Source of the DNA: Nemophila menziesii
Taxonomy: Eukaryota > Streptophyta > Magnoliopsida > Boraginales > Hydrophyllaceae
Direction: 5' to 3'
DNA length: 64,000 nucleotides
Assembly (NCBI GenBank): GCA_029959085.1
Contig: JARWIR010000002.1
Coordinates: 63,604,154-63,668,153 of the forward strand
The notes beneath the pieces were generated by a model. That model was not told where the DNA came from. It saw nothing but the letters and a program-made list of their open reading frames with translations, and searched no databases. Both the position numbers and the translations under genes were made by a program. The stretch's first letter is position 1. Each line of letters opens with the position of its first letter. Positions 11,396-49,524 of this stretch are shown piece after piece.

Positions 11396-12615
11396 ATGTA
11401 TATAGGACATTACCCAAATCCTGGTCCATTTTACTATTGGGAAGACTCTTCGGGACAACAACAATGGGGTAGTAACTTCTACCAACCACCTTATCAACAC
11501 CCGCAAGAGCAAGGATGGAATAACCAATGGACCAGGTTTAATTAACAACAATTATCATATCACTATCAGCAAGAGCACGGAGGGAACAACCAGTGGGTTG
11601 AAAACATTCGACACTATTCACCTCATAACTATGTGCAAGAGGCACTACGAGACTTAAGTGCTAGAGTTGATCGCCAATACGAGGAAAGAAAGGAAAGAGA
11701 GCTAGAACGTAAGGTAGAAGAAGAAGAAAGAAGAGCCATCTGTGCATCCACACAACAGATACTAGACGAAATGGAGTCCAAATATAATTCTCATGACTTT
11801 GCCGAGAGAAATAGCAAGTCTTATGAAGACCCCAAATTCGAATGCCGGTACGAGGAAAATAAGGCAAGAGATCAAGAGAAAAAGGCAAGAGAAGCGGAAA
11901 GTAATGCTAGATTTGAAAGAACACAACGAGTACTAGATGAAATTGCTTCCTATTATAATTCTCTTAATGTTTCCAAGAGTAGTAGTAAGTCCCATGAAGA
12001 TTCCACTCCCCCAAGGGATGGAAGAGATCAACCGGAAGAAGTAGTTGAGGAGGAGGTGTTGAAAGAAGACATTATTGATAGTGATATGACCACCATGCCA
12101 ATTATAAATAGAGACCACCATGTGGTTGAGAATCTTCTTAGCATGGTGGAAGAAGGAGTAACAACGCAAATCCTAGAAGTTAACACAAAAATTGCTATTC
12201 CTATGGTGTATGCACATGATCAAGATCTAGAATGCAAACAAGAAGAGGTGGTGGTCGAGGTTATATAAATTACAAAGAAAAAATATGATGAGGTAATAGT
12301 GGAAGATTGGGTTGAAAGTGAAGATGAATGTGAAGTGGTTGAGGAGTCCATCGAAGAATTCGAAGTTCACAATAAAAGAGAAGTCGAATTTCTGCCACAA
12401 AAAGTTCACCAATCACCATCTCCACCACAAATCATAATTAGAGCTGAAAAATCGGAATCACCTCTATTACTAAAAATGATCACTAGGTGCTACGCAAGAA
12501 AAGTGCTGCACCGCGAGAGTAAAGCCGCAAGGAGGAGCACATATCCACCACATTTTAAAGAGGAACGTGAGATTGAAACGAGGAATAAAAATGAGCTTAT
12601 ACCGTTGAGAACGGT
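11396..12615 (+). pseudogene. Coiled-coil protein of element B, first part
   Basis: This is the main ORF of B and resembles neither Gag nor Pol. I do not recognise a family. One frame runs from the ATG at 11396 (MYIGHYPNPGPFYYWEDSSG), with stops at 11543-11545 (TAA) and 12266-12268 (TAA). The N-terminus is Gln/Tyr/Trp rich. The middle is a charged coiled coil with two similar units (EERKERELERKVEEEERRA... and EENKARDQEKKAREAESNA..., each leading to a QxxLDE motif and an SKSxED motif). The C-terminal part is acidic, then basic (CYARKVLHRESKAARRSTYP). Element C interrupts it at 12616. It sits where gag lies in the other elements. Confidence 0.7.
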
Positions 12616-14121
12616 TCGTGTCGCCTAGGGTGTGATAAAAATAAGATAAAATTAAGCCAAGAAACTATGCACTCTCACCCTAGACAGACACAGTACTGCA
12701 AGTATTACAGGACGTATGCAAGTTTTAATGATAAATAGAGTTCGTTCTCAGGGACTTAAGTGTGTTAATCGCGTGAGTAGAAATAACGAGTAAAAGTAAA
12801 TAATTAGAGAACAGAAAAGTAAAGCAAATAGATTTCGAAAATAGCAATTAAAAGTAGGAAAATAAAGACAATAAAGTAAAAGATTAAGAATATGAGATGA
12901 GAAATATAGCTTAGGTTTTGCTAGTATGCACTAATCCTTCTAATTCTATCTATAAATCTAGTTAATAAGGGAGAATATTAGCTCTTGGTAATACTTAGTC
13001 ATGATTCTAAATTCCCCAAGCTTAGACCTTGAGAGCGACTAATGGGGCTACGTCACAACCAAGAAGTGATTTCAAATAGGGTTATCAAACGCTACTAAGG
13101 CCCTAAGCAAATACTGCAATCTTGGTGATACGGTGGTTAAAACAAACCCTAATGACTATCTAGTTAGAAGTATGTTTTGTCAGAACTGCTATCGACACTA
13201 GACATTATGTGGTGGTTCAATAGTTAAACACCCTGTCAAGGAGACCATCTAACTACTATTAAAACAATCCTAAAGTGATCAGTTCTAGGAAAGACATTAA
13301 ATCAAAACACATAAGCAAATATAAAGTAAGAAGCTAATATCAAATTAAAACATGTAATTCCCAAAGAAACTTAGATAGAAGAATTAGAATTCATAGTTTA
13401 TACATATGCAAAACCCAAGCTATGGGAAGTTTAGTTCATACCTGATGGAAATAAACTAAAAGAAATTACAAAAGACATCATCTTGCTCTCTACAATAAAC
13501 TGGAAGAATAAAGGATTAATGCCCAAGAAACACCTCAAATCAAATTTAATGCCCCCTCACCCCTGCCGTTCTCCTTTTGCCCATAAAAGGCACCTCTTTT
13601 AATTTTTTTCCTATCCTACCCCTTTCTACCGCCGCCGCTCTCTCTCTCTCCACGAGTTCATAAACAAATAACTATGATAGCCGCTCTCTCTTTCGTTTAA
13701 ATCATCAACATATACACAAACACTGTGAATTATGAGAGCACCCATTAATAACGAATTTAGCAAGAAAAATAAAGAAACAGAGAGAAGAATAAGAAGAAGA
13801 ATGAATAAGAGAGGAAGAAGAGATGTTTTATTTCTTGTTACAGTTACAATGTACAAAACTAGTTTATATACAATCATATCTAACTAGATATAGCTGTAAT
13901 CTAACTAATTTTTATGTAGAAGAAACAATTTGCATTTTGGTCCCTGCATTATTTCTTTTTATCCAATTCATTTGCTGTATTCAAAGATAGATTGACATCT
14001 CCACTGAAACATGATATTTGAGTATTGGGAAAGTAAGAAATTATGATTGAATTGTGCGAAAGTTTGTATAGAATAAGTTGATTGATTAACGTTGAAAAAC
14101 TAGAAGAAAAAAACAATTCAA

Positions 14122-14700
14122 ATGAGTAATGGGAATCTCTCCCAGAACTCAATATTTAGTCCGCAAGTACAAAAATGTACTTGCTTAGCGTTTTCTGAGT
14201 TCTGGGAATTTATCCCAGTACTCAATATTTGCCACAAGTCCAAAAGTGCACTTGCACAAGTACAAAAGTGGGCTTGCACAAGTACAATCCGAGTTCTGAG
14301 TAATGGGAATCTATCCCAGAACTCAACATTTAGTCCACAAGTACAAAAGTGAACTTGCTTAGCCTTTTCCGAGTTCTGAGTAATGGGAATCTATCCCAGA
14401 ACTCAACATTTAGTCCACAAGTACAAAAATGTACTTGCACGAGTTGTGGGAAACACTCCCATTACTCAATATTAGTCCATACAGTACAAAAGTGTACTTG
14501 CACGAGTTGTGGGAAACACTCCCATTACTCAACATTAGTCCATACAGTACAAAAGTGTACTTGCACGAGTTGTGGGAAACACTCCCATTACTCAACATTA
14601 GCCCATACAGTACAAAAGTGTATTTGCACGAGTTGTGGGAAACACTCCCATTACTCGCCCTTGACAAAAATTGTACTTGCACAAGTCCACTACTCGCCCT
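14122..14700. repeat. Tandem repeat array inside the Mutator-like element
   Basis: Imperfect units of about 80 bp (containing GAGTAATGGGAATCTATCCC and ACAAGTACAAAAGTG) pass into about four units of 63 bp (14435-14690; GAGTTGTGGGAAACACTCCC, then AGTCCATACAGTACAAAAGT). The two unit types are clearly related. Several translated reading frames repeat as a result, but they are not genes. Confidence 0.85.
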
Positions 14701-14726
14701 TGGCAGCAGCAGTAGACAGCAGTAAG

Positions 14727-14868
14727 CATTAAGGTATATTTACCTTAAGTGCCTTTTATGGGCAAGTGGCTAAGGTGGCAGGTGGTTATTGGGCTAAGGG
14801 CATTAAGGTATATTTACCTTAAGTGCCTTTTATGGGCAAGTGACTAAGGTGGCAGGTGGTTATTGGGC
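14727..14868. repeat. Tandem duplication of the right terminal block of the Mutator-like element
   Basis: A block of about 70 bp containing AAGGTATATTTACCTT (a palindrome) and TGCCTTTTATGGGCAAGTG occurs twice in a row (14727-14795 and 14797-14868). The block includes part of the terminal inverted repeat, so the end of the element was duplicated in tandem. Confidence 0.8.
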
Positions 14869-15515
14869 ATTCACCCAAGAATAAAACCTTAAGAACTAAT
14901 TACTATGAGGCAAGGATGATTTACAAGTGATATAAGGGTGTATTTATAGGTGTTTAGAAGACCTAATTCGTTTTCTTGAGGAAGATTTAAGGTAATGGAC
15001 TTCTAGCCCAACTCAAATTCGTATGGAAATAAAGATAAACACTGCTGCACCGTTTTGAGTGTATCTTCTTCGTTATTGGTCGGATTTTGCTCCACAAGAT
15101 ACCAAAAGAATCGCAACAGAATTATCTAGGCCCTTTAGAAGGAAATCATCAGATTCGGCCTATTTCTTAGGTAAAAACGCCTATCTTTGGACGTGTATGC
15201 AGAATCCCAGATTTAGGCAGCTTTTCCTTTTCCATCTTTTTAGCTTTTCTTTTCTTATCTCCAATTACCATGCAAATCTCTTTCCATACGTTGTTGTCTT
15301 TGACTTGTACTCTAATTAAGCTCCATAATTATCTTTAAAGCTACACACTAAATAAACAATTAAACACAATATGCTCTAAAAACAATAATTCTACAAATCA
15401 AGACACAAAATAGGAAAGTGCACTAAAACTCAAGAAAATCGACATTATTGACTTCTAAATCACTTAAAATGATGTCTCATCCTAACATTATTCTATCACA
15501 AATGAGGAGACATCA

Positions 15516-15551
15516 AGACCCCCAACTCAAAGTTGTATTGTCCCGATACAA
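15516..15551 (-). promoter_or_regulatory. PPT and adjacent hairpin of C
   Basis: On the minus strand, GAGTTGGGGGTCT (15516-15528) abuts the 3' LTR and is the polypurine tract that primes plus-strand DNA. Next to it, 15533-15551 folds as TTGTATCG-GGA-CAATACAA with one mismatched pair. Confidence 0.8.
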
Positions 15552-17101: not shown

Positions 17102-18301
17102 CGAGGCTATTGCCTCGCATCATTGACATCCAAGGTTGGAATTGCTGGACCTTTCGTTAATTGCTCAAGGAGTTTCATGATGTGCACTTGATTATCGTTG
17201 ATTTGTGCCACATCATTGACTAAGGAAGTTTGAGCTGCTTCAAATTTCGTCAAACGCTCCTCCATCTTCTCTTGCCAATTTTCCTCCTTTTCTTCCTTCG
17301 AGACTTGCGTAGAACCCGCTTGTCGAAGAATTTCCTTGATCCAAGCATTATCAATATAACTCATTTTAAATTTGAGTTTCTATTCTTCACCCAATACTAC
17401 ATTCGCTTTTCGCACAAGGCACGTGATCATAGTTGGAAATTTAACATTATAAACTTATTTAGGAGAGACCGAAAATCGTATCACCTTCTCATAGATCAAT
17501 TGTGCCACATCAACTTCTTCTCCTCTCAAAATACAGTCCAACAGTAGAGCGTACTTCATAGTCACATCCAAAGTTCGTGTGTTTCCAAAAATATTAGGGA
17601 CAAGGAAATTGTGCCTAATTCGCGCATCTGCTTGAAGATATTTGTAAGGCCAAGGTGCCTTCAATTCTCCCTTATGTGATTGCACTTTCTCTTTGTCTAA
17701 AACATGCTCAAAAGTAATTCCTCATCAAAGATTTTTTGTTTAGCAACTGCTTCTTCAAATTTGCAAAAACCTTTCAGTTTCTTAAACTCGAAGTGGTTCC
17801 TAATCTCCTCAACTGTGAAAGGGACTAGCTTTCCTTTAACCGGAATACCATTAATATCTCGGCTAAAGAGGCCTAAATAGAACTACAAAACTAATTCATG
17901 ACATAATTCAGAACGTCTTACCATGAACGTAGACCAACCCAATTTCTCACCAAGCTCTAAGAATCTCTTGTATTCTCCATCTTTAATTTCTTCCTTGAAT
18001 ACTTTCTCATAAGCAAAAGGTAGTTCTTTTAATTGTTTCTCCGCAGAAGTCTTCAAGGCCTTTGAAGTATCCACTTTCTCTATAGGTATAAGATCTTGTT
18101 GAGGTTGTGTTCTCTCCTTTGTATAATAATAAAGCTTTTTACCATTACGATCATACGAAGGTTTCCCACTCTTCTGCACTTTATCTTTACCCTTTGATTT
18201 AGAACTAGCACCTTTGTCAATTGATTTCTTCTTGTTTAAATCCAATCCCTTGTACTATTCACCTCCCTCTTGTTAGCTAAGATTGTTGTTCTATTAGTCA
18301 T
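17102..18301 (-). pseudogene. Env-position ORF of C (broken)
   Basis: This lies where Athila elements carry their third ORF. It starts at the ATG at 18301 (MTNRTTILANKREV), shifts frame near 18250, and continues through pieces at 18245-17883 (SAEKQLKELPFAYEKVFKEE, GWSTFMVRRSEL), 17685-17455 (IRHNFLVPNIFGNTRTLDVT, LLDCILRGEEVDVAQLIYEK) and 17364-17107, a coiled coil ending in NDARQ. The middle resembles the domain often annotated as putative plant transposon protein (PF20167-like, from memory). I see no signal peptide or membrane segment, so calling it an envelope protein is not supported. Several frame breaks make it inactive. Confidence 0.7.
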
Positions 18302-19110: not shown

Positions 19111-19336
19111 CCTTTGCTCCAAAATTTTTTCCTCGCGTTCCCTAACTCGATTTCTCCGATTCCTACACACCAAAAACACTAATACCTTCCTCAAATATGC
19201 ATTATCAACTAAAAATAACTAAAATAAACTTAAACTAAAAACGTAAAAGACATGAAAACACAAAAAAAAAACTACGGGTTGTCTCCCGTACAACACTTTT
19301 GTTTTATGTCTTTCAAAGTTAGACGTGTTACCTCTG

Positions 19337-22186
19337 TCAAGATTTGCGAATATAGCCTCCCCAACAACGAGTAAGGCTATGAACGTCAACTAATCTGCGC
19401 TTGACACCAGTTTTGGGGCGAATCTCTATCACCTTGGCTGAAACAACCTTAGTGACGATGAACGGTCCCATCCACGAGTCTTTGAAACTTCGTGGCCTGT
19501 TCTCGCGTTTGTGGGCTTTACATAGGACTTCATGGCCAACCCCAAACTCAATGTTTGGCTCAGTATCCACAGGTTTTAAGTGGATCTCCTCAGGAGGGAC
19601 TTTGTGATGTGAAAGACTGTGGATGATAGGCACTGTGGGATCCAACTTCCTCGGTTTCTTACCCAAGACATAGAAGGTCTCGGATACATTCTTAGCATGA
19701 AGGGTGATGGTCCCATCTTGGAAGTTGATCACACTTTGACTTGTGGCCATGAAAGGCAGTCCAAGTATGATTGGAACCTGCTTATCTGCATCAAACTCAA
19801 GAATAACAAAGTCAGTAGGGATGGCGATATTACCTGCTCGGACTAAGACGTCCTCCACTGTTCCCCATGTCCTTTTAACTGAGTTGTCAGCAAACTGTAG
19901 CTTCACTGGAGTTTTCTCTGATTTCTGAAGTCCAAGTCTCTCGAACACGGATTTAGGCATAAGATTCACACCAGAACCCACATCGTACATCGCTTTCACT
20001 TTGAGCCTACCATGTAATTGAATAGGAAGGTTGAAACTTCCCGGATCTTTAAGCTTCGTAGGTAGCTCTTTCTCACTTCTTCTCGAAACCCTCAGGTTCT
20101 CTCTTGGGATCTCTACACTCGCCTCTTTCTCAGGAATAACTTGCGTAAAAACTTGTTGCGGTGTAAGTCCTCTCTTCGCAATCTCAAGCATTTGGGCGTT
20201 GATATTTTCAGGTTGGTACGCCTCTATAAATGTCTTGAGGACAGTGTCATCTTTAGGATTTGTAACAGGAATGGTTGATGACACTGGTTGAACACTAGGT
20301 GGCGGTTCCACCTTCTCTTCTACTTTCTCTTCTAGCACAGCAGGTGCCACTTCATCTTTCGATTCCTCCTTTGAGGCTTCTTCCTCTTTCTCTTTAGCCA
20401 ACTCAGCTGCATATTCTACTACCGATCGAATTTCCTCTTGCACCTTCCTCAGTAACTCTATGAACTCGTCTTTCTCTTGATCGTCCTCCACATAAACTTC
20501 TAAACAGTCAGATTCCTCGGTGCTAGACTCGGTTGGTTCTTCTTCAATACTGGGAACGTCCACGGCACTAATGGCAGCATGTGGTGCTTCCTCTTTTGCT
20601 TCTTTAATCTCAAGGCATATAGCCTTGCAAGCTTCGAACTCATCCTTGTCTTCACCTCCTTCGATTGCCTTTACTTCTTTTTGTTCTACAACACTTGTTA
20701 ACACTTTGTTTAACTGTGTTACTTGAGTAGTTAGCATCTGAAGTATGGCATCATGTCCTCTGACCTTCTCGTCTTGAGCATTAAGAGTTGTGTTCAAACG
20801 GTCTAGAGCTTGTACTATCTGTGTATTGTCCATAGATCCCTCTTGCGGATACTGAGGTAAAGATTTCTGATCTAAGGACTCAGTATAGGCGTCTTGAGCA
20901 GGTTGTTGTGGAGGAGCAGGTCTATTCTGATATTGGTTTTGGTACTGACCTCTCTGTTGGTAAGAGTTGTTCTGGGGACGCGGTTGATATTGACCAGGAT
21001 TAGCGGCCCCTTGTGGATTTGAATACTGCATACCCGGATGGTTGCGATTGCCCCATCGGTTGGATATAAAGTAAACAGATTGCGGATTTGATTCGCACTC
21101 TTCCCATACATGATCGTTAACTCCACATTGTTGACAACCTTGTGCTTCTTGTACTACCTTTGTAGCAGCTAAATTCTTCTCCATCGCGATTCTCAGCTCT
21201 TTGATTTGATTTTCTAATGAGGATATTTGAGCTGAATTCGCAGTTTCTGCATCTAAACGAAGCGTTCCTCGAGTCTTTGCTACAGAAGCTCGCGTTGAAG
21301 GCCAACTTCTTTCTTGTTCCATAATATTTTCCAACACCTCGGAAGCTTCATTGTGATTCATGGACACAAAATTACCCTTTCCAATGTTATCCACCTTTTC
21401 TCTACCTTTATCATTAAGGCCTTCATAGAACATCGCAAGTTGTAGAGCATGTGTATAACCATGGAGCGGACATCTACTTAATTTTTGCTGAAACCTTGTC
21501 CATGATTCTCCCACTGTTTCTCCATCTTCTTGAGAAAATCTTGCAAGCTCGGTTTGATCTTTAAGTCTCATGCTCTTCGGATAAAATCGGTTAAAGAATG
21601 CGGCTTGAAGTTCTCTCCAAGAGTGAATGGTTCCATGTGGTTGTCCCTCTAGCCAATCGCTAGCTCTTCCGGTCAAGAAAAACGAAAACATATGACAATA
21701 CAGTTGCTCGCGTGTAATGCCAGGAGTAATGTAGGCATCACAAATCTGCATGAATTTCTGAATCGCTTTTACCGGATCTTGAATAGCTGTACCAGTATAG
21801 AGTCCGAAACTTTGAAATTGACTGAGCATGCCCGGATCGGGTCTAAATTTGATATTCGGAATCTCAGGAGGGCGGTAACCAATTGGTTGAACATGGAATG
21901 GTACATTAAGGCCAGGAAGGTCTTGTTCAACTCGGTTTTGTTGATTATGAAGATTGTTCCCATTACCTCCTCCTGCTGGTAATTGTTGTCCTTCTTGTCC
22001 ACCGAGTGGTGGATCTTGTTGACCGAGAGGTGCACCAAGTGGTGGATCTCCTCCTACTGGTAATTGTTGTCCTCCTACTTGTTGGGCTGCCATAACTCTT
22101 CTCAAGGCTCTTTCCTCACGAACTCGTTTGTTGTAAGGTCTGAAGCTCCTCTCAGGCTCCGATAAGGGAGGCCAAGAATTAAACAC
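19337..22186 (-). CDS. Gag-protease-GPY/F fusion protein of C (949 aa, intact)
   Basis: A single open frame starts at MFNSWPPLSEPERSFR, a start shared with E. Residues 100-330 are Athila-type capsid (RPDPGMLSQFQSFG, ITPGITREQLYCHMFSFF, AAFFNRFYPKSMRLKDQ). A CCHC zinc knuckle (CQQCGVNDHVWEEC) is at 351-364, then a Gln/Pro-rich tail and an acidic low-complexity stretch (about 540-630). Aspartic protease follows, with YDVGSGVNLMPKS (Asp about 735) and VPIILGLPFMATS. Then, with no RT, RNase H or integrase core, comes FGVGHEVLC and SWMGPFIVTKVVSAKVIEI (Trp 905), resembling the C-terminal GPY/F domain of integrases, ending CWGGYIRKS. Being open for 949 codons, while its env-position ORF is broken, suggests a recently made, useful protein supplied with RT in trans (inference). 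Confidence 0.92.
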   Translation of the reverse strand: MFNSWPPLSEPERSFRPYNKRVREERALRRVMAAQQVGGQQLPVGGDPPLGAPLGQQDPPLGGQEGQQLPAGGGNGNNLHNQQNRVEQDLPGLNVPFHVQPIGYRPPEIPNIKFRPDPGMLSQFQSFGLYTGTAIQDPVKAIQKFMQICDAYITPGITREQLYCHMFSFFLTGRASDWLEGQPHGTIHSWRELQAAFFNRFYPKSMRLKDQTELARFSQEDGETVGESWTRFQQKLSRCPLHGYTHALQLAMFYEGLNDKGREKVDNIGKGNFVSMNHNEASEVLENIMEQERSWPSTRASVAKTRGTLRLDAETANSAQISSLENQIKELRIAMEKNLAATKVVQEAQGCQQCGVNDHVWEECESNPQSVYFISNRWGNRNHPGMQYSNPQGAANPGQYQPRPQNNSYQQRGQYQNQYQNRPAPPQQPAQDAYTESLDQKSLPQYPQEGSMDNTQIVQALDRLNTTLNAQDEKVRGHDAILQMLTTQVTQLNKVLTSVVEQKEVKAIEGGEDKDEFEACKAICLEIKEAKEEAPHAAISAVDVPSIEEEPTESSTEESDCLEVYVEDDQEKDEFIELLRKVQEEIRSVVEYAAELAKEKEEEASKEESKDEVAPAVLEEKVEEKVEPPPSVQPVSSTIPVTNPKDDTVLKTFIEAYQPENINAQMLEIAKRGLTPQQVFTQVIPEKEASVEIPRENLRVSRRSEKELPTKLKDPGSFNLPIQLHGRLKVKAMYDVGSGVNLMPKSVFERLGLQKSEKTPVKLQFADNSVKRTWGTVEDVLVRAGNIAIPTDFVILEFDADKQVPIILGLPFMATSQSVINFQDGTITLHAKNVSETFYVLGKKPRKLDPTVPIIHSLSHHKVPPEEIHLKPVDTEPNIEFGVGHEVLCKAHKRENRPRSFKDSWMGPFIVTKVVSAKVIEIRPKTGVKRRLVDVHSLTRCWGGYIRKS

Positions 22187-22322
22187 TGTGAAACCTGAAA
22201 AAGACTAAAGCAAACCACAAGCGTAAATCTAGAAAAATAAAAACTAAACTAAAACTAAAAAGTAAGAACTAATTAAAAACTAAAACTCGAAATAGATAAC
22301 CCACACGCTAACGAGAAACAAG

Positions 22323-22340: not shown

Positions 22341-22346
22341 AAAACT

Positions 22347-23873
22347 TGGTGTCGCCTAGGGTGTGATAAAAATAAGATAAAATTAAGCCAAGAAACTACG
22401 CACTCTCACCCTAGACAGGCACAGTACTACAAGTATTACAGGACGTATGCAAGTTTTAATGATAAATAGAGTTCGTTCTCAGGGACTTAAGTGTGTTAAT
22501 CGCGTGAGTAGAAATAACGAGTAAAAGTAAATAATTAGAGAACAGAAAAGTAAAGCAAATAGATTTCGAAAATAGCAATTAAAACTAGGAAAATAAAGAC
22601 AATAAAGTAAAAGATTAAGAATATGAGATGAGAAATATAGCTTAGGTTTTGCTAGTATGCACTAATCCTTCTAATTCTATCTATAAATCTAGTTAATAAG
22701 GGAGAATATTAGCTCTTGGTAGTACTTAGTCAGGATTCTAAATTCCCCAAGCTTAGACCTTGAGAGCGACTAATGGGGCTACGTCACAACCAAGAAGTGA
22801 TTTCAAATAGGGTTATCAAACGCTACTAAGGCCCTAAGCAAATACTGCAATCTTGGTGATACGGTGGTTAAAACAAACCCTAATGACTATCTAGTTAGAA
22901 GTATGTTTTGTCAGAACTGCTATCGACACTAGACATTATGTGGTGGTTCAATAGTAAAGCACCATGTCAAGGAGACCATCTAACTACTATTAAAACAATC
23001 CTAAAGTGATCAGTTCTAGGAAAGACATTAAATCAAAACACATAAGCAAATATAAAGTAAGAAGCTAATATCAAATTAAAACATGTAATTCCCAAAGAAA
23101 CTTAGATAGAAGAATTAGAATTCATAGTTTATACATATGCAAAACCCAAGCTATGGGAAGTTTAGTTCATACCTGATGGAAATAAACTAAAAGAAATTAC
23201 AAAATACATCATCTTGCTCTCTACAATAAATTGGAAGAATAAAACCTTGAGAACTAATTACTATGAGGCAAGGATGATTTACAAGTGATATAAGGGTGTA
23301 TTTATAGGTGTTTAGAAGACCTAATTCGTTTTCTTGAGGAAGAGTTAAGGTAATGGAATTCTAGCCCAACTCAAATTCGTATGGAAATAAAGATAAAGAC
23401 TGCTGCACCGTTTGGAGTGTATCTTCTTCGTTATTGGTCGGATTTTGCTCCACAAGATACCAAAAGAATCGCAACTGAATTATCTAGGCCGTTTAGAAGG
23501 AAATAATCAGATTCGGCCTATTTCTTAGGTAAAAACGCCTATCTTTGGACGTGTATGCAGAATCCCAGATTTAGGCAGCTTTTCCTTTTCCATCTTTTTA
23601 GCTTTTCTTTCCTTATCTCCAATTACCATGCAAATCTCTTTCCATAAGTTGTTGTCTTTGACTTGGACTCTAATTAAGCTCCATAATTATCTTTAAAGTT
23701 ACACAATAAATAAACAATTAAACCAAATATGCTCTAAAAACAATAATTCTACAAATCAAGACACAAAATAGGAAAGTGCACTAAAACTCAAGAAAATCGA
23801 CATTATTGACTTCTAAATCACTTAAAATGATGTCTCATCCTAACATTATTCTATCACAAATGAGGAGACATCA
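22347..23873 (-). repeat. 5' LTR of C
   Basis: The LTR is 1,527 bp. On the minus strand it runs from TGATGTCTCC at 23873 to ...GACACCA at 22347. It matches the 3' LTR apart from the Mutator-like insert and a small number of substitutions, e.g. near 22430, 22590, 22724 and 22955. Confidence 0.94.
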
Positions 23874-23878
23874 ACGGT

Positions 23879-28466: not shown

Positions 28467-28786
28467 GGTGTGGTGCATCGCAGTTATGGTGCGGTGTACC
28501 GCATGGTACATCTGATTTTCACCAATTTTTCTCGTTTCTTCTCCCAAACTCGATTTTTTAAATACCTGCACATCAAGAAACACTTATACCTTCCTAAATA
28601 CTTCAATATCTACTAAAAAAACTAATCTAAACATAAACTAAAGACATAAAAACAAAATAACATAAAAAAAATTGAAAGTTGTCTCCCGGATAGCACTTTT
28701 GTTTAATGTCTTTCAAAGTTAGACGTGTTACCTCTATCAACATTTTCGTATGTAGCCTTATTAGCAACGAGCAAGGCTATGAACCT
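28467..28786 (-). pseudogene. Element H remnant: GC module and end of Gag-PR-GPY/F ORF
   Basis: Minus strand. The part near 28700-28786 corresponds to the last codons of the fusion ORF in C (VHSLARC then stops, then GYIRK). The conserved block ...AAACAAAAGTGCTATCCGGG follows at about 28680-28735. At 28467-28505 is a remnant GC module (GCGGTGTACCGC). The piece continues at 39790 beyond element D. Confidence 0.7.
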
Positions 28787-34100: not shown

Positions 34101-35482
34101 AGGCTCGAAGGATCTGATGCGAACAAAGAACCATTGTTGGTTAAAAAGGTATTCCCTGATGAAAAACATTTTGCTATTAAAAACGCGTTTGTGCCATGGT
34201 ATGCAGATCTAGTAAACCTCATCGTGAGTGGAGTATTCCCTAAGGATATCCACCCACAACAAAGACAAAGATTATCTCACCAGGCCAAACAGTACTATTG
34301 GGATGAACCGTACCTCTGGAAGATTTATAGTGATCAAGTTGTTAGACGATGTGTTCATGAAGGCGAAGTTGACAAGATCATAGCAAGTTGTCATAATTCA
34401 CCTTATGGAGGTCACTTTAAAGGCGATAGAACCGCAACTAAAATTCTTCAATCCGGGTCTATTGGCCTACCCTACACAAAGATTGTCATCGTTTTGTCCA
34501 GTCATGTCAAAGATGCCAGTTCATTGGTAATATATCAAAAAGAGACGCGATGCCGCTTAACAATATTCTAGAAGTCGAAATCTTTGATGTATGGGGAATA
34601 GATTTCATGGGACCTTTCATCACTTCCCATGGAAATCTGAACATTTTGCTTGCGGTAGATTATGTATCAAAATGGGTAGAAGCAGTGGAAACACCGAAGA
34701 ACGTTGCTCAAACAGTGATTAAGTTCTTAAAAACAAACATCTTTTCAAGACATGGTACACCACGTGTTCTCATCAGTGATAAAGGTACTCATTTTATTAA
34801 CGCTCCACTGAGAAACTATCTTCGTAAGTTTGGAGTGAGACACCGTATTTCAACTGGTTATCACCCACAAACTAACGGTCAAGCTGAAGTTTCCAACCGG
34901 GAAATCAAATCTATTCTTGAGAAGACCGTGAATAAAACGAGGAAATATTGGTCTTTAAAGCTAGATGATGCTCTCTGGGCTTACTAAACAACATTTAAAA
35001 CACCGGTTGGGGCATCTCCATATCGCATGGTCTACGGCAAAGCGTGTCATCTACCTATTGAACTTGAAGCTCGAGCCTTCTGGGCTATTAAAACTCTGAA
35101 TCTAGATCCAGAATTGGCCGGGAAACAAAGGATGATGCAGCTAAACGAGTTGGAGGAGTTTCGCTATCTTGCCTATGAAAATTCACGCCTATACAAGGAG
35201 AAAACAAAGAGATGGCATGATAGGCGACTCCGTCCAAAGCATTTCGAGAAAGGACAAAAGGTTTTATTATACAACTCTCGATTTTCGAACTACCCAGGAG
35301 AGCTTAAATCCCGTTGGGGAGGACCTTACATTGTTACGAAAGTCACACCTCATGGAGCAATTGAAATTGAACATCCAACCGAGCAACGGACATTCATGGT
35401 GAATGGCCAGCGTTTGAAGAGATACCATGACAGTGAGGACTTTGGGCGAGAGGAGACAATCTATTTCGTAGAAAGCGCTTAG
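34101..35482 (+). pseudogene. Integrase of D with GPY/F-type C-terminus
   Basis: The HHCC finger (CHNSPYGGHF) precedes a one-base deletion near 34460. The core then has Asp at 34601-34603 (DVWGIDFMG), Asp at 34778-34780 (ISDKGTHF) and Glu at 34886-34888 (GQAEVSNRE), the D,D(35)E spacing. A TAA at 34985-34987 follows LDDALWAY. The C-terminal part has [34 protein letters not shown] and [14 protein letters not shown], the GPY/F domain. It ends [12 protein letters not shown], unlike the CWGGY ending of C, E and K. Confidence 0.9.
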
Positions 35483-35689
35483 CCTGAGGTACACGTCTAA
35501 CTCAAAGACGTTAAACAAAAGTGCTCTTGGGAGACACCCCTTGTTTTAAATGCTTTTTAGATTAGTTTATTGCTTTGTAGTGTAAAATCTTAAGTTAGTG
35601 TATATTTTTAATTGTGTTTACAAGCTAATAGGAGAGGAAGGTAGTGTGTTACTGTGCAGGAAATGAGTTTGGGGTCAAAGGAAAATTTT

Positions 35690-39789: not shown

Positions 39790-40034
39790 AACGTCTACTA
39801 ATCTCCGTTTGATACCCCTCTTGGGGGGATCTCTATCACTTTTTCCGAAACAACTTTTGTAATGACAAATGGTCCCATCCACAAATCTTTGTGATTGCAT
39901 GGCCTATTCTCGGTTTTGTGGGCTTTCTATTCAAATCCAAGTCCGTACCCAAACTCACTCATTGGTCTAGTATCCACAGGATTTGCGTGGATTTCTTCTG
40001 GAACTCTGTTTCTGGTAGCAATGTGGATGACAGG
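39790..40034 (-). pseudogene. Element H remnant: GPY/F segment
   Basis: On the minus strand it reads EEIHANPVDTRPMSEFGYG, then KAHKTENRP and DLWMGPFVITKVVSEKVIEI, with stops. This is the C-terminal module of the fusion ORF seen in C and E. It connects leftward to 28786 and rightward to 49525. Confidence 0.8.
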
Positions 40035-41578
40035 TGGTGTTGCCTAGGGTGTGATTAAATAATATAATGAAAGATATAGAAACGATGCACAATTCACCCT
40101 AGATAAGCACGGTACTGCAAGTATTACAGGACGTATGCAAGTTTTAATGATAAGAAAGTTCGTTCTCAGGGACTTAGTGTGTTCTACGAATGAGAACTAA
40201 TTAGGAGTAGCAAGTAATTAATTAAAGATAGAAACTAAAGAAGAATAAACTGAGAGATACTTAATTAAGCTAATGAAAATAAAGACAATAAAATACATAC
40301 GAAGAAATATGAGATGAGAGATATAGCTTAGGTATTGCTAGTATGCACTAATCCTTCTAATTCTTCCTATCAGTTCTAGTTAATAAGGAAGATAATATCT
40401 CTTAAATACTTAGTCAGGATTCTAAATTCCCATACCCTAGACCTTGAGAGCGACTAGGGGGGCTACGGCACAACCACGAGGCAGCCTAAACTTAGGGTTA
40501 TCCTACGCCATTAGGTTCCTAAGCAATTCAATTCCAAACATGGTGATAGTGGTTAAAACAAACCCTAATGACTATCTAGTTAGAATCGGTGTTGTCAAGA
40601 CCAATATCAGACACTAGTCGTTATGTGGTGTTTCAATAATTAGACACCCCTTCCGAGCGACCATCTAATTACTATTAAGAAAGCCTAAAGTGATCAGGTT
40701 TAGGATAGGCAATAATTCAAAACACATACACAAATATATGGGTAAGCAGCTAATATCAAATTAAAACATATAATTCCCAAAAAAACTTAGATAGAAAGAA
40801 AATAGAATTTATAGATTATACATAATTCAAATCCCAAGCTATAAGAATATTAGTTCATACCTGAAGGAAATAAACTAAAAGATTGAATAATAGACTCCAT
40901 CTTGCTCTCTACAATAACTCTAATGATATAAACCCTAAGAACTAATTTATGTGAGACAAGGATGATTTACAAGTGATATAAGGGTGTATTTATAGGTGTT
41001 TAGAAGACCTAATTCGTTTTCTTGGAGTAGAAGACAGGTAATGGACTCCTAGCCCAAATCAAATTTGTAACCCTAAAATATAGAAAAGGTAACAATCAGC
41101 CACGTTTTTGTTTTGGTCATAACTGCTTCAATACTTAAATGTTTGATGCGTTCCAATAGTCGAAACTTATCGTCTCGGAAAGCTCTTTAACTTTTCTCTT
41201 GACCATTATTCCAAATTCCTCACCAATCTTGATATATAAGCCCATTTGTGGTCGTGGGTGCTGGAATTCATATTTATTTGGCAACTTTATCTTTCCATAT
41301 CCTAGCTTTTCCTTTCTTTTCTCCAATTTCCATGTATATTTTCTTTCCTTTATATCGTATAATTGACTTGGCATATAATTAAGCTCCATATATATCTTTA
41401 AAGCTTCACACTAAATAAATAATTAAACCCTATATGCTCTAAAAATAATAATTCATAAAATCAAGACTAGAAATAGGAAATTGCACTATATCATGTGAAA
41501 ATCGAGTATTTAGACTTCTAAAACACTAAAAATGATGTCTCTAACTAATATTAATTCATGACAAATGAGGACACACCA
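40035..41578 (-). repeat. 3' LTR of E
   Basis: The LTR is 1,544 bp. On the minus strand it starts TGGTGTGTCC, a mutated form of TGATATCTCC, at 41578 and ends ...CAACACCA at 40035. It differs from the other LTR at scattered sites, concentrated near the left end. Confidence 0.92.
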
Positions 41579-42995
41579 AGACCCCAAATCAAAGTTGTAT
41601 CGTCCCGATACAAAAAAGATAAAAACAAAGGGAAGTCTCTAAATACACACCTAGGTCAATTTAAGCACAATGGGAAAGGAGATAACGGAATATATAGAAT
41701 AGACATAAAGCAACTACTCAGAAAAATTTCATGTAATAATATTTACACACTACATACCTGTACACTTCTCATGTTCACAGTCAACACGGTTTGAATTCAA
41801 GATTAGATTAGCTTCGCAATGTAAGAATGATTGGAACTTTACTTAGTTCGCCAAGGAAGCTATAGATTGTTCGTCGAACTTTACTAGTACCCAAAGATCC
41901 ACTTAACTACTCTCTATTGACTCAATCACTTTTAGATTACATAGAAAAGAATCAAAAGGTATTTAAGGTTGTAATTGTCTTAGGGATGATATGATAGTAT
42001 ATTTGGATAATTTATAGTGAGCTTTTGGCTCTCTCCTCACTAGCCATCAACGAATTACTCAACCAAATGATTTTTCTTGATGCACAAAGTAACATCCCCA
42101 ATAACTCAATTAAAGCATAAAGGTGTTCACATAAAAATTCCTCTTTGCCGGTCCGAATATATATTCTTATCAAATCACTTTTTCTTTTGTATAGTTATAA
42201 CTCTCTTTTTGATGTTGAGATATCATGCTATTTTTCTCATAGATCTTTTTCTTTTCTTTTCATTCTTTTCGGATTTTTTTCATTCACTATAACCCCGGCA
42301 AAGGGTTACAATATAAACCTGTGAATCCTCATCAATATAATAACAGAGCACAATTAATAAGCTAAAAATTCCCAACCCAGTAACAATTCCCATAATGGTG
42401 GACCCACCACCCCAAACTCAAGCTCTAAAACAACTGTTTATGCATCGCGATTCGAGTGCGGGTCATATGGAAAAGTCCTATAATATAAAGGGATATGGAT
42501 TATAATGTGGTTAAACAAAAAGGCTTTAGAAAGGCTAGAAGGGGCTGAGAAGGATATAAAATATTAAATCAAATAATAGGGTGAGAAAGTTAAAAGGCTT
42601 CAAGTGGCTTCAATATGAAAGAACTGTCTTAATCATTTTCTACACCATGCAATTTCGTTATTCTCTTACCTTTAGCACGTTCATCAAATGGGTTTGTCAA
42701 CTAGCTTGGATCTCACGACCTACAAACCACTCAAGGTTCTCTGAGATCGAACATAATTTCTATCGCATTTCTAACTAATCTTTTGCTTTCAAGCTATTAA
42801 ACACACTCTACATCTAATTCTCATGTATCAAAAAATTTAATTTCTACCTAAAAACAGAAAAAATAAAGATGAGAGACAACGAATCCCCACACCCCCAACT
42901 CAAAAATGAGTCGTGTCCCCACGACTCGAAAAAGAAATTAAAATTATCAGATAACATATTTACAGAAATGGTAAGGAAGAAAGAGAACGTACTCT
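41579..42995 (-). other. PPT, hairpin and conserved 3' block of E
   Basis: The PPT (minus sense TTTGATTTGGGGTCT) abuts the LTR. 41595-41613 is a perfect TTGTATCG-GGA-CGATACAA hairpin. The hairpin block is at 42016-42041 and the tRNA-Asp-like CCCCGGCAA (complement of TTGCCGGGG) at 42293-42301. No gene. Confidence 0.8.
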
Positions 42996-44193
42996 CGAGG
43001 CTATTGCCTCGCATTATCGACATCCAAGATAGGATTTGCTGGATCTTTCTTTAATTTCTCAAGGAGTGTCATGATGTGCACTTGATTTGCTTTGATTTGT
43101 GCCACATCATTGTCTAAGGAAGTTTGAGCTGCTTCGACTTTGTTTAAACGCTCCTCCATCTTCTCTTGCCAACTTTGCTCCTTTTCTTCTTTTGAGACTT
43201 GCGTAAAACCCGCTCCTCTCAAGACTTTCATGATCCAAGAATTGTCAATATTACTCTTTTTATACTCCAATTTCTCTTTTTCACCCAAAATTACATTCTT
43301 TTTTCGCACAAGACACGTGATCATAGTAGGATATTTTACATTATAAACCGTTTTAGGAGAGACCGGAAATCGCATCACCTCCTTAAAGATCAACTGTGCC
43401 ACATCCACTTCTTCCCCTCTCAACATACAATTCAATAATAGAGCGTTCTTTTTACTTATGTCCCAAATTCGTGTGTTTCCAAATGCGTTAGGGAAAAGGA
43501 AATTGTGCCAAACTTTAGCATCTGGTTTAAGATATTTGTAAGGCCAAGGTGCCTTCAATTCTCCCTTATTGCACTTTCTCCTTGTCTAAAACATACTCAA
43601 AAAGTAAATTCCAATCAAAGATTCATTGTCTATCCACCGATTCTCTATACTTGCATGGTCCAACCAATTTCTTAAACTGGAAGTGGTTTCTAATCTCTTC
43701 AATTGTTAAAGTAACTAACTTTCCTTTAACAGGAACACAACCTTCACTATCTCGGCTAAAGAGGCCTAAATAGAAATATGAAACTATTAATTCAGAACGT
43801 CTTACCATGAATGTAGACCAACCCAATCTTATACCAAGATCCAAGAATCTCTTGTATTCTCCTTTACCTACTTCTTCATCAAATACTCTCTCATAAGCAA
43901 AAGGTAGTTCCTTTAACTGTTTCTTTGCAGAAGCTATCATGGCCTTTGAAGCTTTCTCTTTGTCTTTGGGTGTAGAACCTTTGAATTCGAGAGCTTGTGT
44001 TGTCTTCTTCACAAAAAGGTTAACCCTTTTTCCTTTTGAATCAAACACAGCTAGCTCACCTCTCTTTACAATATATTTTACCCTTTGTGTTGGAAATAGA
44101 ACTTTTCTCACTTGATTTCTTTTCAATAGAACCCAATACCTTGCTTTTCTACATCTCTCTCTTAGTAGATAATGTTTCTGTTCTCTTAGTCAT
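42996..44193 (-). pseudogene. Env-position ORF of E (broken)
   Basis: It starts at ATG 44193 (MTKRTETLSTKREM), followed by a stop. A long frame from 44126 to 43623 has ASAKKQLKELPFAYERVFDE, GWSTFMVRRSELIVSYFYLG and LTIEEIRNHFQFKKLVGPCK. A second frame, 43558 to 43001, has VWHNFLFPNAFGNTRIWDIS, LLNCMLRGEEVDVAQLIFKE and a coiled coil (EERLNKVEAAQTSLDNDVAQ), ending DNARQ. It is homologous to C's ORF and better preserved. The middle looks PF20167-like (from memory); no membrane segments. Confidence 0.75.
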
Positions 44194-45112: not shown

Positions 45113-47871
45113 TCAAGATTTACGAATATAGCCTCCCCAAAAACGAGCAAGGCTATGCCCGTCAACTAATCTGCGCTTAATGCCCTTCTTAGGCCTGATC
45201 TCTATCACCTTAGCTGAAACAACTTTAGTGACTATGAATGGTCCCATCCACGAGTATTTGTAACTTCGTGGCCTATTCTCTGGTTTGAGGGCTTCCATAG
45301 AACTTCATGGCCGACCCCAAACTCAATGTTTGGCTCAGTATCCACAGGCTTTTCATGGATTTTCTCTTTAGGGACTTTTTGATGTGAAAGGTTGTGGATG
45401 ATAGGAACGGTAGGATCTAACTTCCTTGGTTTCTTACCCCAGACATAGAATGTCTCGGATATGTTTTTAGCATGAAGAGTAATGGTCCCTTCTTGGAAGT
45501 TGATTATGATCTGACTTGTGGCCATGAAAGGCCTCCCAAGTATGATAGGAACCTGCTTATCTGCATCAAAATCAAGTATAACAAATTCAGTAGGGATGTG
45601 ATGTTACCTGATCAGACATGAACGTCCTCCACTGTTCCCCATGTTTTGGCAACTGAGTTGTCAGCAAACTGCAACTTCACTGGAGCTTTCTCTGATTTCA
45701 GAAGTCCAAGTATCTCGAACACGAACTTTGGCATAAGGTTCACACCTGAACCCACATCACACACAGCTTTCACCTTGAGCATACCATTTAGTTGAATAGG
45801 AAGGTTGAGACCTCTAGGATCTCTGATCTTCAATGGTAACTCTTTCTCTACTCTTCATGAGACTCTCACAATCTCTTTCTTGGCTTCTACACTCGCTTCT
45901 TTCTCCGGAAACTTGCGTAAAAACTTGTTGCGGTATAAGCCCTTTCTTCGCAATCTCAAGCATTTGGGCGTTGATAATTTCAAGAGTGTACGCCTCTACA
46001 AATGTCTTGAGTTCAATGTCACCCTTCGGATTTGTATTAGGAATGGTTGATGACACTGTTTGAACAACTGGTGGCGATTCGACCTTCTCTTCTTCTATCT
46101 TTTCTTGCACAGCAGGTGTAACTTCTACTCTTGGTTCTCTTGAGGCTTCTTCCTCTTTCTCTTTAGCTCTCTCAGCTTGTAATTCCATAACCAATCTAAT
46201 CTCTTCTTGCATATCTCTCAAAAGCTGTATAAAGTTGGATTTTTTTGAATCTTCTTTCACATCATCTTTAGAACAGTTAGAATCCACGGGGCTAGACTTG
46301 GTTGGTTCTTCTTCGTTACTAGGAACTGCCACGGCACTTTCGGCAGCATGCGGTACTTCCTTATTTTCTTCAATCTCAAGGCAAATAGCCTTACAAGCTT
46401 CGAACCCAACATTGGCATCACCTCCTTCGATAGCCTTCAATTCCTTTTGTTCCATAATATTAATAAGAACTTTATTCATTTGTTCTACTTGCGTACCTAA
46501 AAACTGAATTGAAGATTGTTGTTCTCTTAACTTATCGCTCTGTGAATGCATATTAGTGGTCATAAGATCCATAAATATTTTCAATTGTTGATCACCCATA
46601 GCTCCTTCTTGCGGATTCTGTGGTAAAACTTTCTGAGCTAAAGTCTCAGTATATGCATCATTAACTGGTTGTTGTGGAGGAGCAGGTTGATTATAATTCT
46701 GATTCTTGGTTGGAAAGAATTATTCTAGGGGCGAGGTTGATAATGACTAGGATTAGTGTCCCTCTGAGGATTTGAATATTGCATACCCGGATGATTTCTA
46801 TTACCAAATTTATATGTTCCTCGGTTGGATATGAAATAAACAGTCCTTCGCATTCTTCCCATGTATGATTTGTAACCCCACACTGTTGACAACCTTGTTC
46901 TTCTTACACTACATTTGCTTCGGCTAAATTTCTCTACATCTCAAGCTTAAGTTCTTTGATTTGATTCTCTAATGCGGATAATTGAGGTTTTTGCGTCTAA
47001 TCGAAGCGTATCTTTGGCATTTGTAATAGGAGCTCGCGAAAGTGGACAACTCCTTTCTGTTTGAATAATATTTTCTAAACCTTCGGCGGCTTCTGCAGGA
47101 TCCATGGACACAAAATTTCCCTTTCTAAGATTATCTACCCTCAATCTACTTTCTCTATTGATACCTTGATAAAATATAGCTAACTGTAAAGATGGGGTGT
47201 AACCATGGAGTGGACATCTAGCTAACTTCTGTTGAAACGTTGTCCATGCTTCTCCTACTTCTTTTCCATTCCTTTGGCAAAACTTTGCAAGCTCGCTTTG
47301 GTCTTTGAGTCTCATACTCTTCGGATAAAAACGGTTAAAGAATGCGGCTTGAAGTTCTGCCCATGTATTAATAGTTCTTGGTGGTTGCCTATCTAGCCAC
47401 TCACCAGCTTTACCGGTCAGAAAGAACGAAAACATGTGACAATACAGTTACTCGCTTGTAATGCCTGGATTAACATAGGCATCACAAATCTGCATGAACT
47501 TCTGAGTCGCTCTTACCGGATCTTGAATTGCTGGACCACTGAAGAGTCCAAAACTATGAACATTAAATGAGCATGCCTGGATCGGATCTAAATTTAATAT
47601 TCTGGATCTCTGGCGGACGGTAACCTAATGGTTGAACATGAAACGGTTCTCCCAAACGGTTATTTCTGTTACCTCCTACCGGTGGTATTTGTTGTTGTCC
47701 CACAGGGACAAGTGGTGGATCTACTTGATTTTGTACTTTTATCGTAGCTCTTCTCAAGGCTCTTTCTTCTCGGATGCGTCGCTTATAAACTGTGAAGCTC
47801 CTCTCGGGCTCCGGTAGAGGAGGCCAAAGATGAAACACTGTTGAAACCTGAAAAAGACTAAAGCAAACCAC
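45113..47871 (-). pseudogene. Gag-protease-GPY/F fusion of E (broken)
   Basis: Reading on the minus strand: start region near FHLWPPLPEPERSFTVYKRR (47871 frame), capsid piece 47435-46947 (AAFFNRFYPKSMRLKDQSEL), acidic linker 46599-45814, protease 45833-45612 (CDVGSGVNLMPKFVFEILGL), protease end 45525-45232 (MATSQIIINFQEGTITLHAK, FGVGHEVLWK) and GPY/F 45298-45113 (SWMGPFIVTKVVSAKVIEIR, ending FWGGYIRKS). Frames change between pieces. Same architecture as C, with no room for RT or the integrase core. Decay indicates age. Confidence 0.88.
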
Positions 47872-47980: not shown

Positions 47981-49524
47981 TGGTGTTGCCTAGGGTGAGA
48001 TAAAATAATATAATAAAAGATATAGAAACGATGCACAATTCACCCTAGATAAGCACAGTACTGCAAGTATTACAAGACGTATGCAAGTTTTAATGATAAG
48101 AAAGTTCGTTCTCAGGGACTTAGTGTGTTATACGAATGAGCACGAATTAGGAGTATCAAGTAATTAATTAAAAGATAGAAACTAAAGAAGAATAAATTGA
48201 GTGATACTTAATTAAGCTAATGAAAATAAAGACAATAAAATACATACGAAGAAATATGAGATGAGAGATATAGCTTAGGTATTGCTAGTATGCACTAATC
48301 CTTCTAATTCTTCCTTTCAATTCTAGTTAATAAGGGAGATAATATCTCTTAAATACTTAGTCAGGATTCTAAATTCCCATACCCTAGACCTTGAGAGCGA
48401 CTAGGGGGCTACGACACAACCACGAGGCAGCCTAAACTTAGGGTTATCCTACGCCACTAGGTTCCTAAGCAATTCAATTCCAAACATGGTGATAGTGGTT
48501 AAAACAAACCCTAATGACTATCTAGTTAGAATCGGTGTTGTCAAGACCAATATCAGACACTAGTCGTTATGTGGTGTTTCAATAATTAGACACCCCTTCC
48601 GAGCGACCATCTAATTACTATTAAGAAAGCCTAAAGTGATCAGGTTTAGGATAGGCAATAATTCAAACACATACACAAATATATGGGTAAGCAGCTAATA
48701 TCAAATTAAAACATATAATTCCCAAAAAAAACTTAGATAGAAAGAAAATAGAATTTATAGATTATACATAATTCAAATCCCAAGCTATAAGAATATTAGT
48801 TCATACCTGAAGGAAATAAACTAAAAGATAGAATAATAGACTCCATCTTGCTCTCTACAATAACTCTAATGATATAAACCCTAAGGACTAATTTATGTGA
48901 CGTAAGGATGATTTACAAGTGATATAAGGGTGTATTTATAGGTGTTTAGAAGACCTAATTCGTTTTCTTGGAGTAGAAGACGAGTAATGGACTCCTAGCC
49001 CAACTCAAATTCGTAACCCTAAAATATAGAAAAGGTAACAATCAGCCACGTTTTTGTTTTGGTCATAAATGCTTCAATACTTATCTATTTGGCGCGTTCC
49101 AATAGTCGAAACTGATCGTCTCTGAAAGCTCTTTAACCTTGCTCTTGACCATTTTACCAAATTCCTCACCAATATTAAGAAATAAGCCCATTTGTGGTCG
49201 TGGGTGCTGGAATTTAGATTTATTTGGCAACTTTATCTTTCCAAATTCTAGTTTTTCCTTTCTTTTCTTCAATTTCCATGTATATCTTCTTTCCTTTATC
49301 TCTTAGTATTGTCTTGGCTTATAATTAATCTCCATATATATCTTTAAACCTTCACACTAAATAAATAATTAAACCCAATATGCTCTAAAAATAATAATTC
49401 ATTAAATCAAGACTAGTAATAGGAAAGTGCACTATATCATGTGAAAATCGAGTATTTAGACTTCTAAAACACTAAAAATGATGTCTCTAACGAATATTAA
49501 TTCATGACAAATGAGGAGATATCA
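47981..49524 (-). repeat. 5' LTR of E
   Basis: The LTR is 1,544 bp. On the minus strand it begins TGATATCTCC at 49524, with GAGACATCA as the inverted partner, and ends at 47981 beside the PBS. Confidence 0.93.

What the first reader, a model, noticed from the sequence alone, without database searches (positions are those of the whole stretch)
19337..22186. A Gag-protease-GPY/F fusion without RT or integrase core, repeated in four elements and intact in one
C (949 codons, intact), E, H and K each join Gag and protease in frame to a short module resembling the last domain of integrase (W-x-GPF-x-V-x-KV) and ending CWGGY. Gag-only and Gag-PR non-autonomous elements are known, but I do not recall one that keeps only the GPY/F-like domain. 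The protease is of two types (DVGSG in C and E, DLGAS in K), yet the C-terminal module is shared, which suggests a selected module or module exchange, not independent random deletions. It may tether the element's particle or cDNA to the integrase of a partner or to chromatin (inference).
Basis: partly seen in the sequence, partly recalled or inferred. Interest (0 to 1): 0.88.

Follow-up and report, generated by a model that had tools for sequence, protein, structure and literature searches.

The report
Gag-protease retroelement with integrase tail
Two abundant families of plant jumping genes have lost their copying and cutting enzymes but keep, fused to their shell protein and protease, only the last small domain of the integrase, and that domain has been preserved by natural selection, so it probably does a non-cutting job in the particle.

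Summary
The fusion is real (minus strand). C, E and H are one family sharing one protease-module junction; K is a second. The module is homologous to the integrase C-terminal GPY/F domain: a profile from integrase-bearing elements only finds it, and DNA similarity to RT/integrase-bearing relatives resumes just after the stop codon in both families. Of the 150 best module matches scored for each family in this 1.5 Gb plant genome, 82 (C-type) and 52 (K-type) lie in open frames of at least 900 codons, against 5 of 150 for a full-type integrase tail. In eight open copies each, module dN/dS is 0.22 (C-type) and 0.10 (K-type). Gag-PR-CTD proteins without RT or integrase core also occur in Citrus and Trifolium. 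Closest known: GAG-Pro semi-autonomous and pol-less Athila elements; my paper searches showed no retained CTD. Likely role (inferred): polyprotein multimerisation, for co-assembly with a partner or protease activation.

The parts
19337..22186 (-). Element C: unbroken Gag-protease-GPY/F ORF, 949 codons from GTG (918 from the ATG at about 22093)
21410..21691 (-). C: Gag core (PF03732), aa 166-259
   Evidence: E 2.2e-15
19751..20026 (-). C: retroviral-type aspartic protease (PF13650), aa 721-812, motif DVGSG
19340..19546 (-). C: module homologous to the integrase C-terminal (GPY/F) domain, aa 881-949, ends CWGGYIRKS
19268..19334 (-). C: DNA directly after the stop codon, 80.6% identical to DNA directly after the integrase stop of full-type element F (35486-35547)
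22346..23874 (-). C: 5' LTR; 5-bp target duplication ACCGT
12615..15516 (-). C: 3' LTR interrupted by about 1.36 kb (13513-14876)
   Evidence: 98.7% and 97.7% identity to the 5' LTR in two blocks
17107..18254 (-). C: broken downstream ORF like the Transposase_32 ORF of E
   Evidence: the Pfam match itself was obtained only for E
45472..47588 (-). E: Gag and protease, frame-shifted, same family as C
45116..45333 (-). E: module (82% identical to C over 61 aa), frame-shifted
40035..41579 (-). E: 3' LTR (5' LTR 47981-49525, 95.6% identical); target duplication CCTGT
43001..43558 (-). E: downstream ORF, Transposase_32 (PF20167)
   Evidence: 45.2 bits, cut-off 45
49524..51642 (-). H: Gag and protease, broken, same family
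39819..40040 (-). H: linker and front part of the module, separated from its protease by element E
28655..28784 (-). H: DNA like C 19255-19384 (module end and what follows), separated by element F
   Evidence: 82%
62940..63977 (-). K: protease (DLGAS type) in frame with module; Gag lies beyond the window (L009)
62943..63143 (-). K: module, ends CWGGYVND
58504..60065 (-). K: 3' LTR, 99.87% identical to its 5' LTR beyond the window; target duplication GTGAT
35027..35482 (+). Comparison: end of the integrase of full-type element F with a canonical GPY/F tail

Best explanation
Shown: C, E and H belong to one, and K to a second, abundant non-autonomous Athila-like LTR-retrotransposon family. Each encodes one polyprotein that keeps both ends of the usual Gag-Pol (Gag plus protease in front, the integrase C-terminal GPY/F domain at the end) and lacks RT, RNase H and the integrase core. 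The tail domain evolves under purifying selection, and K's module and protease have different histories. Inferred: RT and integrase come in trans from Athila-like elements of the genome that have them. The kept tail serves as an interaction domain of the Gag-protease polyprotein: it multimerises with itself and with the same domain at the end of the partner's Gag-Pol, so that mixed particles assemble, the missing enzymes are recruited and/or the dimeric protease is activated at the right time.
For: Sequence homology to the integrase CTD: profile search with a canonical-only model (E's module 6e-8, L021's module-only ORF 1.4e-5, K's ORF 8e-5; profile-profile probability 97.3% over 65 columns). 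Position: similarity to full-type relatives resumes just after the stop codon in both families. Fold: a model like that of a true integrase tail made the same way. Selection: dN/dS CTD 0.22 (C-type) and 0.10 (K-type), Gag 0.11/0.11, PR 0.13/0.10. Abundance: 82 of 150 and 52 of 150 best module matches in open frames of 900 codons or more. Phylogenetic conflict: PR tree K with full-type A (90) and F (99*); CTD tree C+K 100/100, K with A and F rejected, p-AU 0.006. Recurrence: P0030 and P0031 of Citrus, P0026 (no species named; 97% identical to P0031 in the protease) and P0038 of Trifolium. Partner signals: C and K share 30 of 30 bases around the LTR end and primer site; F-type integrase tails give 19,552 first-look candidates, 5 of the 150 scored in frames of 900 codons or more. 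Known properties: the GPY/F motif 'mediates multimerization' (PMC2836005, passages, citing Ebina 2008, which I could not read); an intact IN domain in Gag-Pol regulates dimerisation and prevents premature protease activation in HIV-1 (PMC9144474, passages).
Against: No biochemistry. Multimerisation is known for other integrases, not for this derived module. The model is of moderate confidence (mean pLDDT 66.8) and Foldseek gave no hit at E<=0.001. The copies used for dN/dS were picked for long open frames, n=8 per family; the C-type CTD value (0.22) is about twice that of Gag and protease and its interval is wide (0.09-0.48). Of 41 database proteins with Gag and protease but no pol match, only 4 keep a full CTD and 2 a part of it, so the tail is not obligatory, though many of the 35 others may be cut gene models. 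The full-type copies read (A in L024/L031, F in the window) are themselves broken, and the primer site of both looks altered. The partner was inferred from shared signals, not shown.
Confidence: 0.6

Rival explanations
1. Passive leftover: an internal deletion from after the protease to just before the last integrase domain kept the reading frame by luck, and the tail hitch-hikes with the useful Gag-protease.
For: The module lies where the end of pol lies; most other database proteins with Gag and protease but no pol match have no CTD (35 of 41).
Against: CTD dN/dS 0.10 (0.04-0.20) in K-type, below the point value of the neighbouring linker (0.28, 0.14-0.63), and 0.22 (0.09-0.48) in C-type; the same architecture in other Gag-PR lineages of Citrus and Trifolium.
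Confidence: 0.12
2. The tail is an RNA- or DNA-binding domain that helps package or protect the element's RNA, as HIV-1 integrase CTD residues bind viral RNA.
For: Basic modules (net charge +11 in C, +6 in K) and a very basic linker in K (+13); HIV-1 IN CTD lysines bind RNA and Rous sarcoma virus IN RNA binding maps to the CTD (PMC9144474, passages).
Against: Ordinary integrase tails are also basic (+3 to +9), so the charge is not special except perhaps in C; Gag already has a zinc-knuckle-like stretch (by eye).
Confidence: 0.2
3. The tail targets or tethers: it brings particle or cDNA to chromatin or to a partner's intasome.
For: The Ty3 integrase CTD contacts TBP and target DNA (PMC8632968, passages); Tudor, PWWP and Agenet domains are among the structural neighbours of the module or of the control tail.
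Against: No targeting data; SH3-like neighbours are generic; where the copies sit was not analysed.
Confidence: 0.15
4. The DNA, not the protein, is kept: the end of pol holds a cis signal such as a splice site for the downstream ORF.
For: C and E keep a downstream ORF3-like reading frame; similarity resumes just after the stop codon.
Against: In K-type the module has ordinary synonymous divergence (dS 0.18, PR 0.20, all 0.27) but low dN. C-type dS in the CTD is lower (0.094 against 0.169), so a cis element there is not excluded.
Confidence: 0.08

Closest known systems
Semi-autonomous GAG-Pro elements RLG_Sabrina_SA and RLG_WHAM of wheat and barley (PMC9744471, section 2.7 and passages; PMC5738225, passages)
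   Same: Athila-related, very abundant, one ORF with Gag and protease, no RT or integrase; a partner is thought to supply the enzymes and the element Gag
   Different: The papers describe Gag and protease only; no integrase tail is mentioned in what I read. Their protein ends were not examined here
Non-autonomous Athila families of Arabidopsis with gag or gag plus env under purifying selection (PMC2410132, passages and Discussion)
   Same: Pol-less Athila families with intact ORFs, gag dN/dS 0.19-0.38 in the table seen, recombination between families, retained downstream ORF
   Different: No protease or integrase tail is described ('protease' and 'GPY' occur 0 times in the text)
RLG_Quinta (Gag plus DUF1), partner of RLG_Cereba (PMC11302176, abstract and passages)
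   Same: Non-autonomous Gag-coding element with an extra domain, thought to feed Gag to an autonomous partner
   Different: CRM-type; DUF1 is of unknown origin; the authors say only Gag and DUF1 are encoded
TR-GAG elements (PMC9784723, passages)
   Same: LTR elements encoding Gag without pol
   Different: Gag only

Membership tests
Athila clade of Ty3/gypsy LTR retrotransposons | Reverse transcriptase falls in the Athila clade | not testable with these tools
   C, E, H and K encode no RT that Pfam or tblastn found
Athila clade of Ty3/gypsy LTR retrotransposons | Gag and protease homologous to Athila-type elements | tested here: met
   K's protease groups with full-type A and F, 99*; C's Gag is 45-51% identical to full-type elements of the window, though C's protease sits on its own long branch. 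That A and F are Athila is recalled from motifs such as DLGAS; it was not tested on RT
Athila clade of Ty3/gypsy LTR retrotransposons | tRNA-Asp primer site a few bases after the 5' LTR | tested here: inconclusive
   C, E and K have TGGCGCCG-type sites 6 bases after the LTR end; the match to tRNA-Asp is recalled, no tRNA was compared
Integrase C-terminal (GPY/F) domain | W-x-GP(Y/F) motif and alignable sequence along the domain | tested here: met
   (K, W, G, P, V, K, V, I, L invariant in the 4 window sequences aligned)
Integrase C-terminal (GPY/F) domain | SH3-like fold | tested here: inconclusive
   five strands, pLDDT 66.8; a true integrase tail modelled alike has five strands in matching places plus one in its extension, 63.5; integrase chains in 9 of the top 50 PDB rows for the module and 17 of 50 for the control, no E<=0.001 in either, and which part of the chain matched is not shown
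Integrase C-terminal (GPY/F) domain | Attached to a zinc-binding domain and DDE catalytic core | tested here: not met
   neither is found in C or seen in the K-type ORF printed; the frames of the 150 best matches of each family reach at most 1012 and 961 aa
Semi-autonomous GAG-Pro element (Sabrina_SA type) | Intact Gag-protease ORF, no RT or integrase core, high copy number | tested here: met
Semi-autonomous GAG-Pro element (Sabrina_SA type) | Shared primer site and LTR ends with an autonomous partner | tested here: inconclusive
   C and F LTR blocks 69-80% alike, K and A LTRs 90.5%; the primer site of the F and A copies read is altered

The most novel reading that the evidence does not exclude
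Gag-PR-CTD is a recurrent, selected class of semi-autonomous plant retroelement: by keeping both ends of Gag-Pol and dropping the enzymes, it makes particles that multimerise through the GPY/F tail with a partner's Gag-Pol. The tail is an exchangeable co-assembly tag with a function separate from integration, and the lineage seen in Citrus and Trifolium is old.
Probability: 0.4. Interest if true: 0.78.

Novelty: new variant of a known kind. Interest (0 to 1): 0.62.

Why it matters
Pol-less Gag and Gag-protease elements make up a large part of some plant genomes, but why they keep the proteins they keep is an open question. Families that threw away the integrase's catalytic parts and kept its tail under selection are a natural separation-of-function experiment. 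They say the GPY/F domain has a job in the particle or polyprotein that does not need the catalytic core in the same protein, and that job can be tested with a 70-residue fragment.

Tried and rejected
Rejected: four independent deletions (C, E and H share one junction; K is a second family). Rejected: simple recent deletion of an A-type element as the origin of K, because the 403 bp between 63339 and 62935 do not match A at DNA level while both sides do at 86% and 82%, and the module does not group with A's tail. A recent C-to-K transfer is also unlikely: the modules are 47% identical in protein and gave no blastn hit.
Full report
WHAT IS THERE. The window lies in a 1.5 Gb genome, by its elements a plant's, and is a nest of LTR retrotransposons. 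The reading frame at 19337-22186 is on the minus strand; it codes 949 residues from a GTG, 918 from the first ATG. Pfam recognises Gag (aa 166-259) and an aspartic protease (aa 721-812), nothing of RT, RNase H or integrase core. The last 69 residues (881-949) carry W-M-GPF-IVTKV and end CWGGYIRKS. C is an LTR element with 5' LTR 22346-23874, a 3' LTR interrupted by about 1.36 kb, and a 5-bp target duplication. Behind the ORF it keeps broken pieces of a second ORF which in E still matches Transposase_32.

THE OTHER THREE. E (45116-47588) is the same family, frame-shifted. H (51642-49524) is the same family with its module cut by the insertions of E and of the full-type element F. K (63977-62940, Gag beyond the window in L009) has a different protease, and this copy is frame-broken between Gag and protease. 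K's two LTRs differ at 2 of 1562 positions, C's at 27 of 1538 (12 of 898 and 15 of 640 in two blocks), E's at 64 of 1543, so K is very young.

THE MODULE IS AN INTEGRASE TAIL. The integrase tail of F and the modules find each other by tblastn (E 6e-7 and 2e-6). A profile built only from integrases that have a catalytic core finds the modules (E's piece 6e-8, K's ORF 8e-5; module-only ORF of L021 1.4e-5), and profile against profile gives 97.3% over 65 columns. Position agrees: DNA similarity between C and F resumes at 19334, directly after C's stop, against 35486, directly after F's stop (80.6% over 67 columns); between K and the full-type A element (L024 plus L031, itself a broken copy) it resumes at 62935, directly after K's stop, against L031 2654, a few bases after A's pol stop (82%) (A's stop). 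The AlphaFold model of C's module (pLDDT 66.8) has five strands; F's true integrase tail modelled from the same four sequences (63.5) has five strands in matching places and one more in its extension. Neither has a Foldseek hit at E<=0.001. Among the top 50 PDB rows 9 are integrase chains for the module and 17 for the control (counted by hand). This leans towards the SH3-like integrase fold but does not prove it.

TWO ABUNDANT FAMILIES WITH OPEN FRAMES. The C module found 27,412 first-look candidates; the 150 scored are the query itself and 149 at 99% identity, 82 of the 150 in frames of at least 900 codons. The K module found 24,492 candidates; the 150 scored are 95-100% identical, 52 of 150 in frames of at least 900 codons. 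F's integrase tail: 5 of 150 (counted by hand). The last comparison is biased by age and by the longer ORF. First-look counts are not copy numbers. Of 20 regions fetched because their Gag lay in a long frame, 12 are C-type, and 11 of these have the module at the same junction, one of them (L021) with a frame shift just before it. All 8 K-type copies fetched, picked for long frames, are single Gag-PR-module ORFs of 889-960 codons.

SELECTION. Nei-Gojobori dN/dS, codon bootstrap, n=8 each. C-type: Gag 0.11, PR 0.13, linker after PR 0.15, CTD 0.22 (0.09-0.48), all 0.22. K-type: Gag 0.11, PR 0.10, linker after PR 0.28 (0.14-0.63), CTD 0.10 (0.04-0.20), all 0.17. So the K-type tail is as constrained as Gag and protease; the C-type tail is less so but clearly below 1. 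C-type used 8 of the 13 frames extracted; dropped were L021 and L024 (frame ends before the module) and L022, L027 and L028 (a stop early in Gag; the rest of the frame, 813-822 codons with the module, is open). Copies were chosen for open frames, which cannot by itself create low dN relative to dS but is a limit. K-type CTD dS (0.18) is not reduced against PR, so the constraint there is on protein. In C-type, CTD dS is lower (0.094 against 0.169 overall), so an added DNA-level constraint is not excluded.

EXCHANGE. In the protease tree (87 rows, 126 columns, quick method, many forks open) K is sister to A (90), and both go with F (99*); C-type sits on its own long branch (100*). In the CTD tree (26 rows, 68 columns) C and K modules form one group (100/100), and K with A and F is rejected (p-AU 0.006). 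K is thus an A-type backbone (LTR 90.5%, Gag-PR 86%, downstream 82%) carrying a 403-bp island with linker and a C-like module. The modules of C and K are only 47% identical in protein, so the exchange, or the replacement of K's front half, is not recent.

ELSEWHERE. A search of 5.8 billion proteins with residues 100-949 gave 80 hits (only the 7996 candidates sharing most words were scored); with those I held 86. Of 41 with Gag and protease but no RT, RNase H or integrase-core match by blastp, 4 have a full CTD (P0026, whose record names no species, P0030 and P0031 of Citrus sinensis, P0038 of Trifolium pratense), 2 Citrus proteins a partial CTD, and 35 none. P0026 and P0031 stand for 27 member sequences each, P0038 for 17. 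Their CTDs are of the ordinary type (such as VNGHRLKPF) and start after some 20 retained residues before the domain. Citrus and Trifolium group in the protease tree (99*, with Aristolochia P0047; by blastp that protein has no pol match, but by eye its end reads like RT and integrase residues) and in the CTD tree (82/92). Since proteases and CTDs of these proteins group apart from those of C and K, the architecture arose at least twice, or once with heavy recombination later. Gene-model splicing was not excluded for the named Citrus and Trifolium proteins.

HOW IT MAY WORK. Shown: both ends of Gag-Pol kept, the enzymes gone, the tail conserved. Inferred: enzymes in trans. The tail most likely multimerises. 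The GPY/F motif is described as mediating multimerisation (PMC2836005, passages; the original Ebina 2008 paper is not held), and in HIV-1 an intact integrase domain in Gag-Pol regulates its dimerisation and protease timing (PMC9144474, passages). Rivals: RNA binding, tethering, passive leftover, cis signal; see the rival list.

KNOWN OR NEW. Gag-protease semi-autonomous Athila-like elements (PMC9744471 section 2.7), pol-less Athila under purifying selection (PMC2410132), Gag plus an unknown domain (PMC11302176) and TR-GAG (PMC9784723) are known. Passages of PMC5738225, PMC3059260, PMC6317226, PMC8632968 and PMC1142308 were also seen. Ten paper searches and the passages I read did not show a retained integrase tail. 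I call it a new variant of a known kind.

Noticed in passing
window 13512-14877: About 1.36 kb inserted in the 3' LTR of C, including an array with 63-bp spacing between copies.
   Followed up: no
window 22093-22204: C-type frames are open and well conserved for 37 codons before the first in-frame ATG, which is present in 6 of 6 copies printed with a full N-terminus; suggests a non-AUG start or a spliced leader exon.
   Followed up: partly
window 7361-8278: In the first full-type element the integrase frame runs into LTR-like sequence just after the catalytic E, so that copy has lost its CTD, apparently by a deletion into the LTR.
   Followed up: partly
proteins P0014, P0019, P0039: Citrus proteins with Gag and protease end in only the last 15 or so residues of an integrase-like tail, a second kind of remnant.
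   Followed up: no
L011 6520-6780: An old K-like relic in which the motif before the protease joins the module directly, so the protease is missing (read by eye).
   Followed up: no
window 62302-62766 and L031 2822-3340: A repetitive stretch behind pol, shared by K and A-type elements, with open frames; no match was sought.
   Followed up: no
G000:C223:15057-15344: A Gag match inside an open frame of 5832 codons, which fills a 17.5 kb contig and may be an assembly oddity.
   Followed up: no
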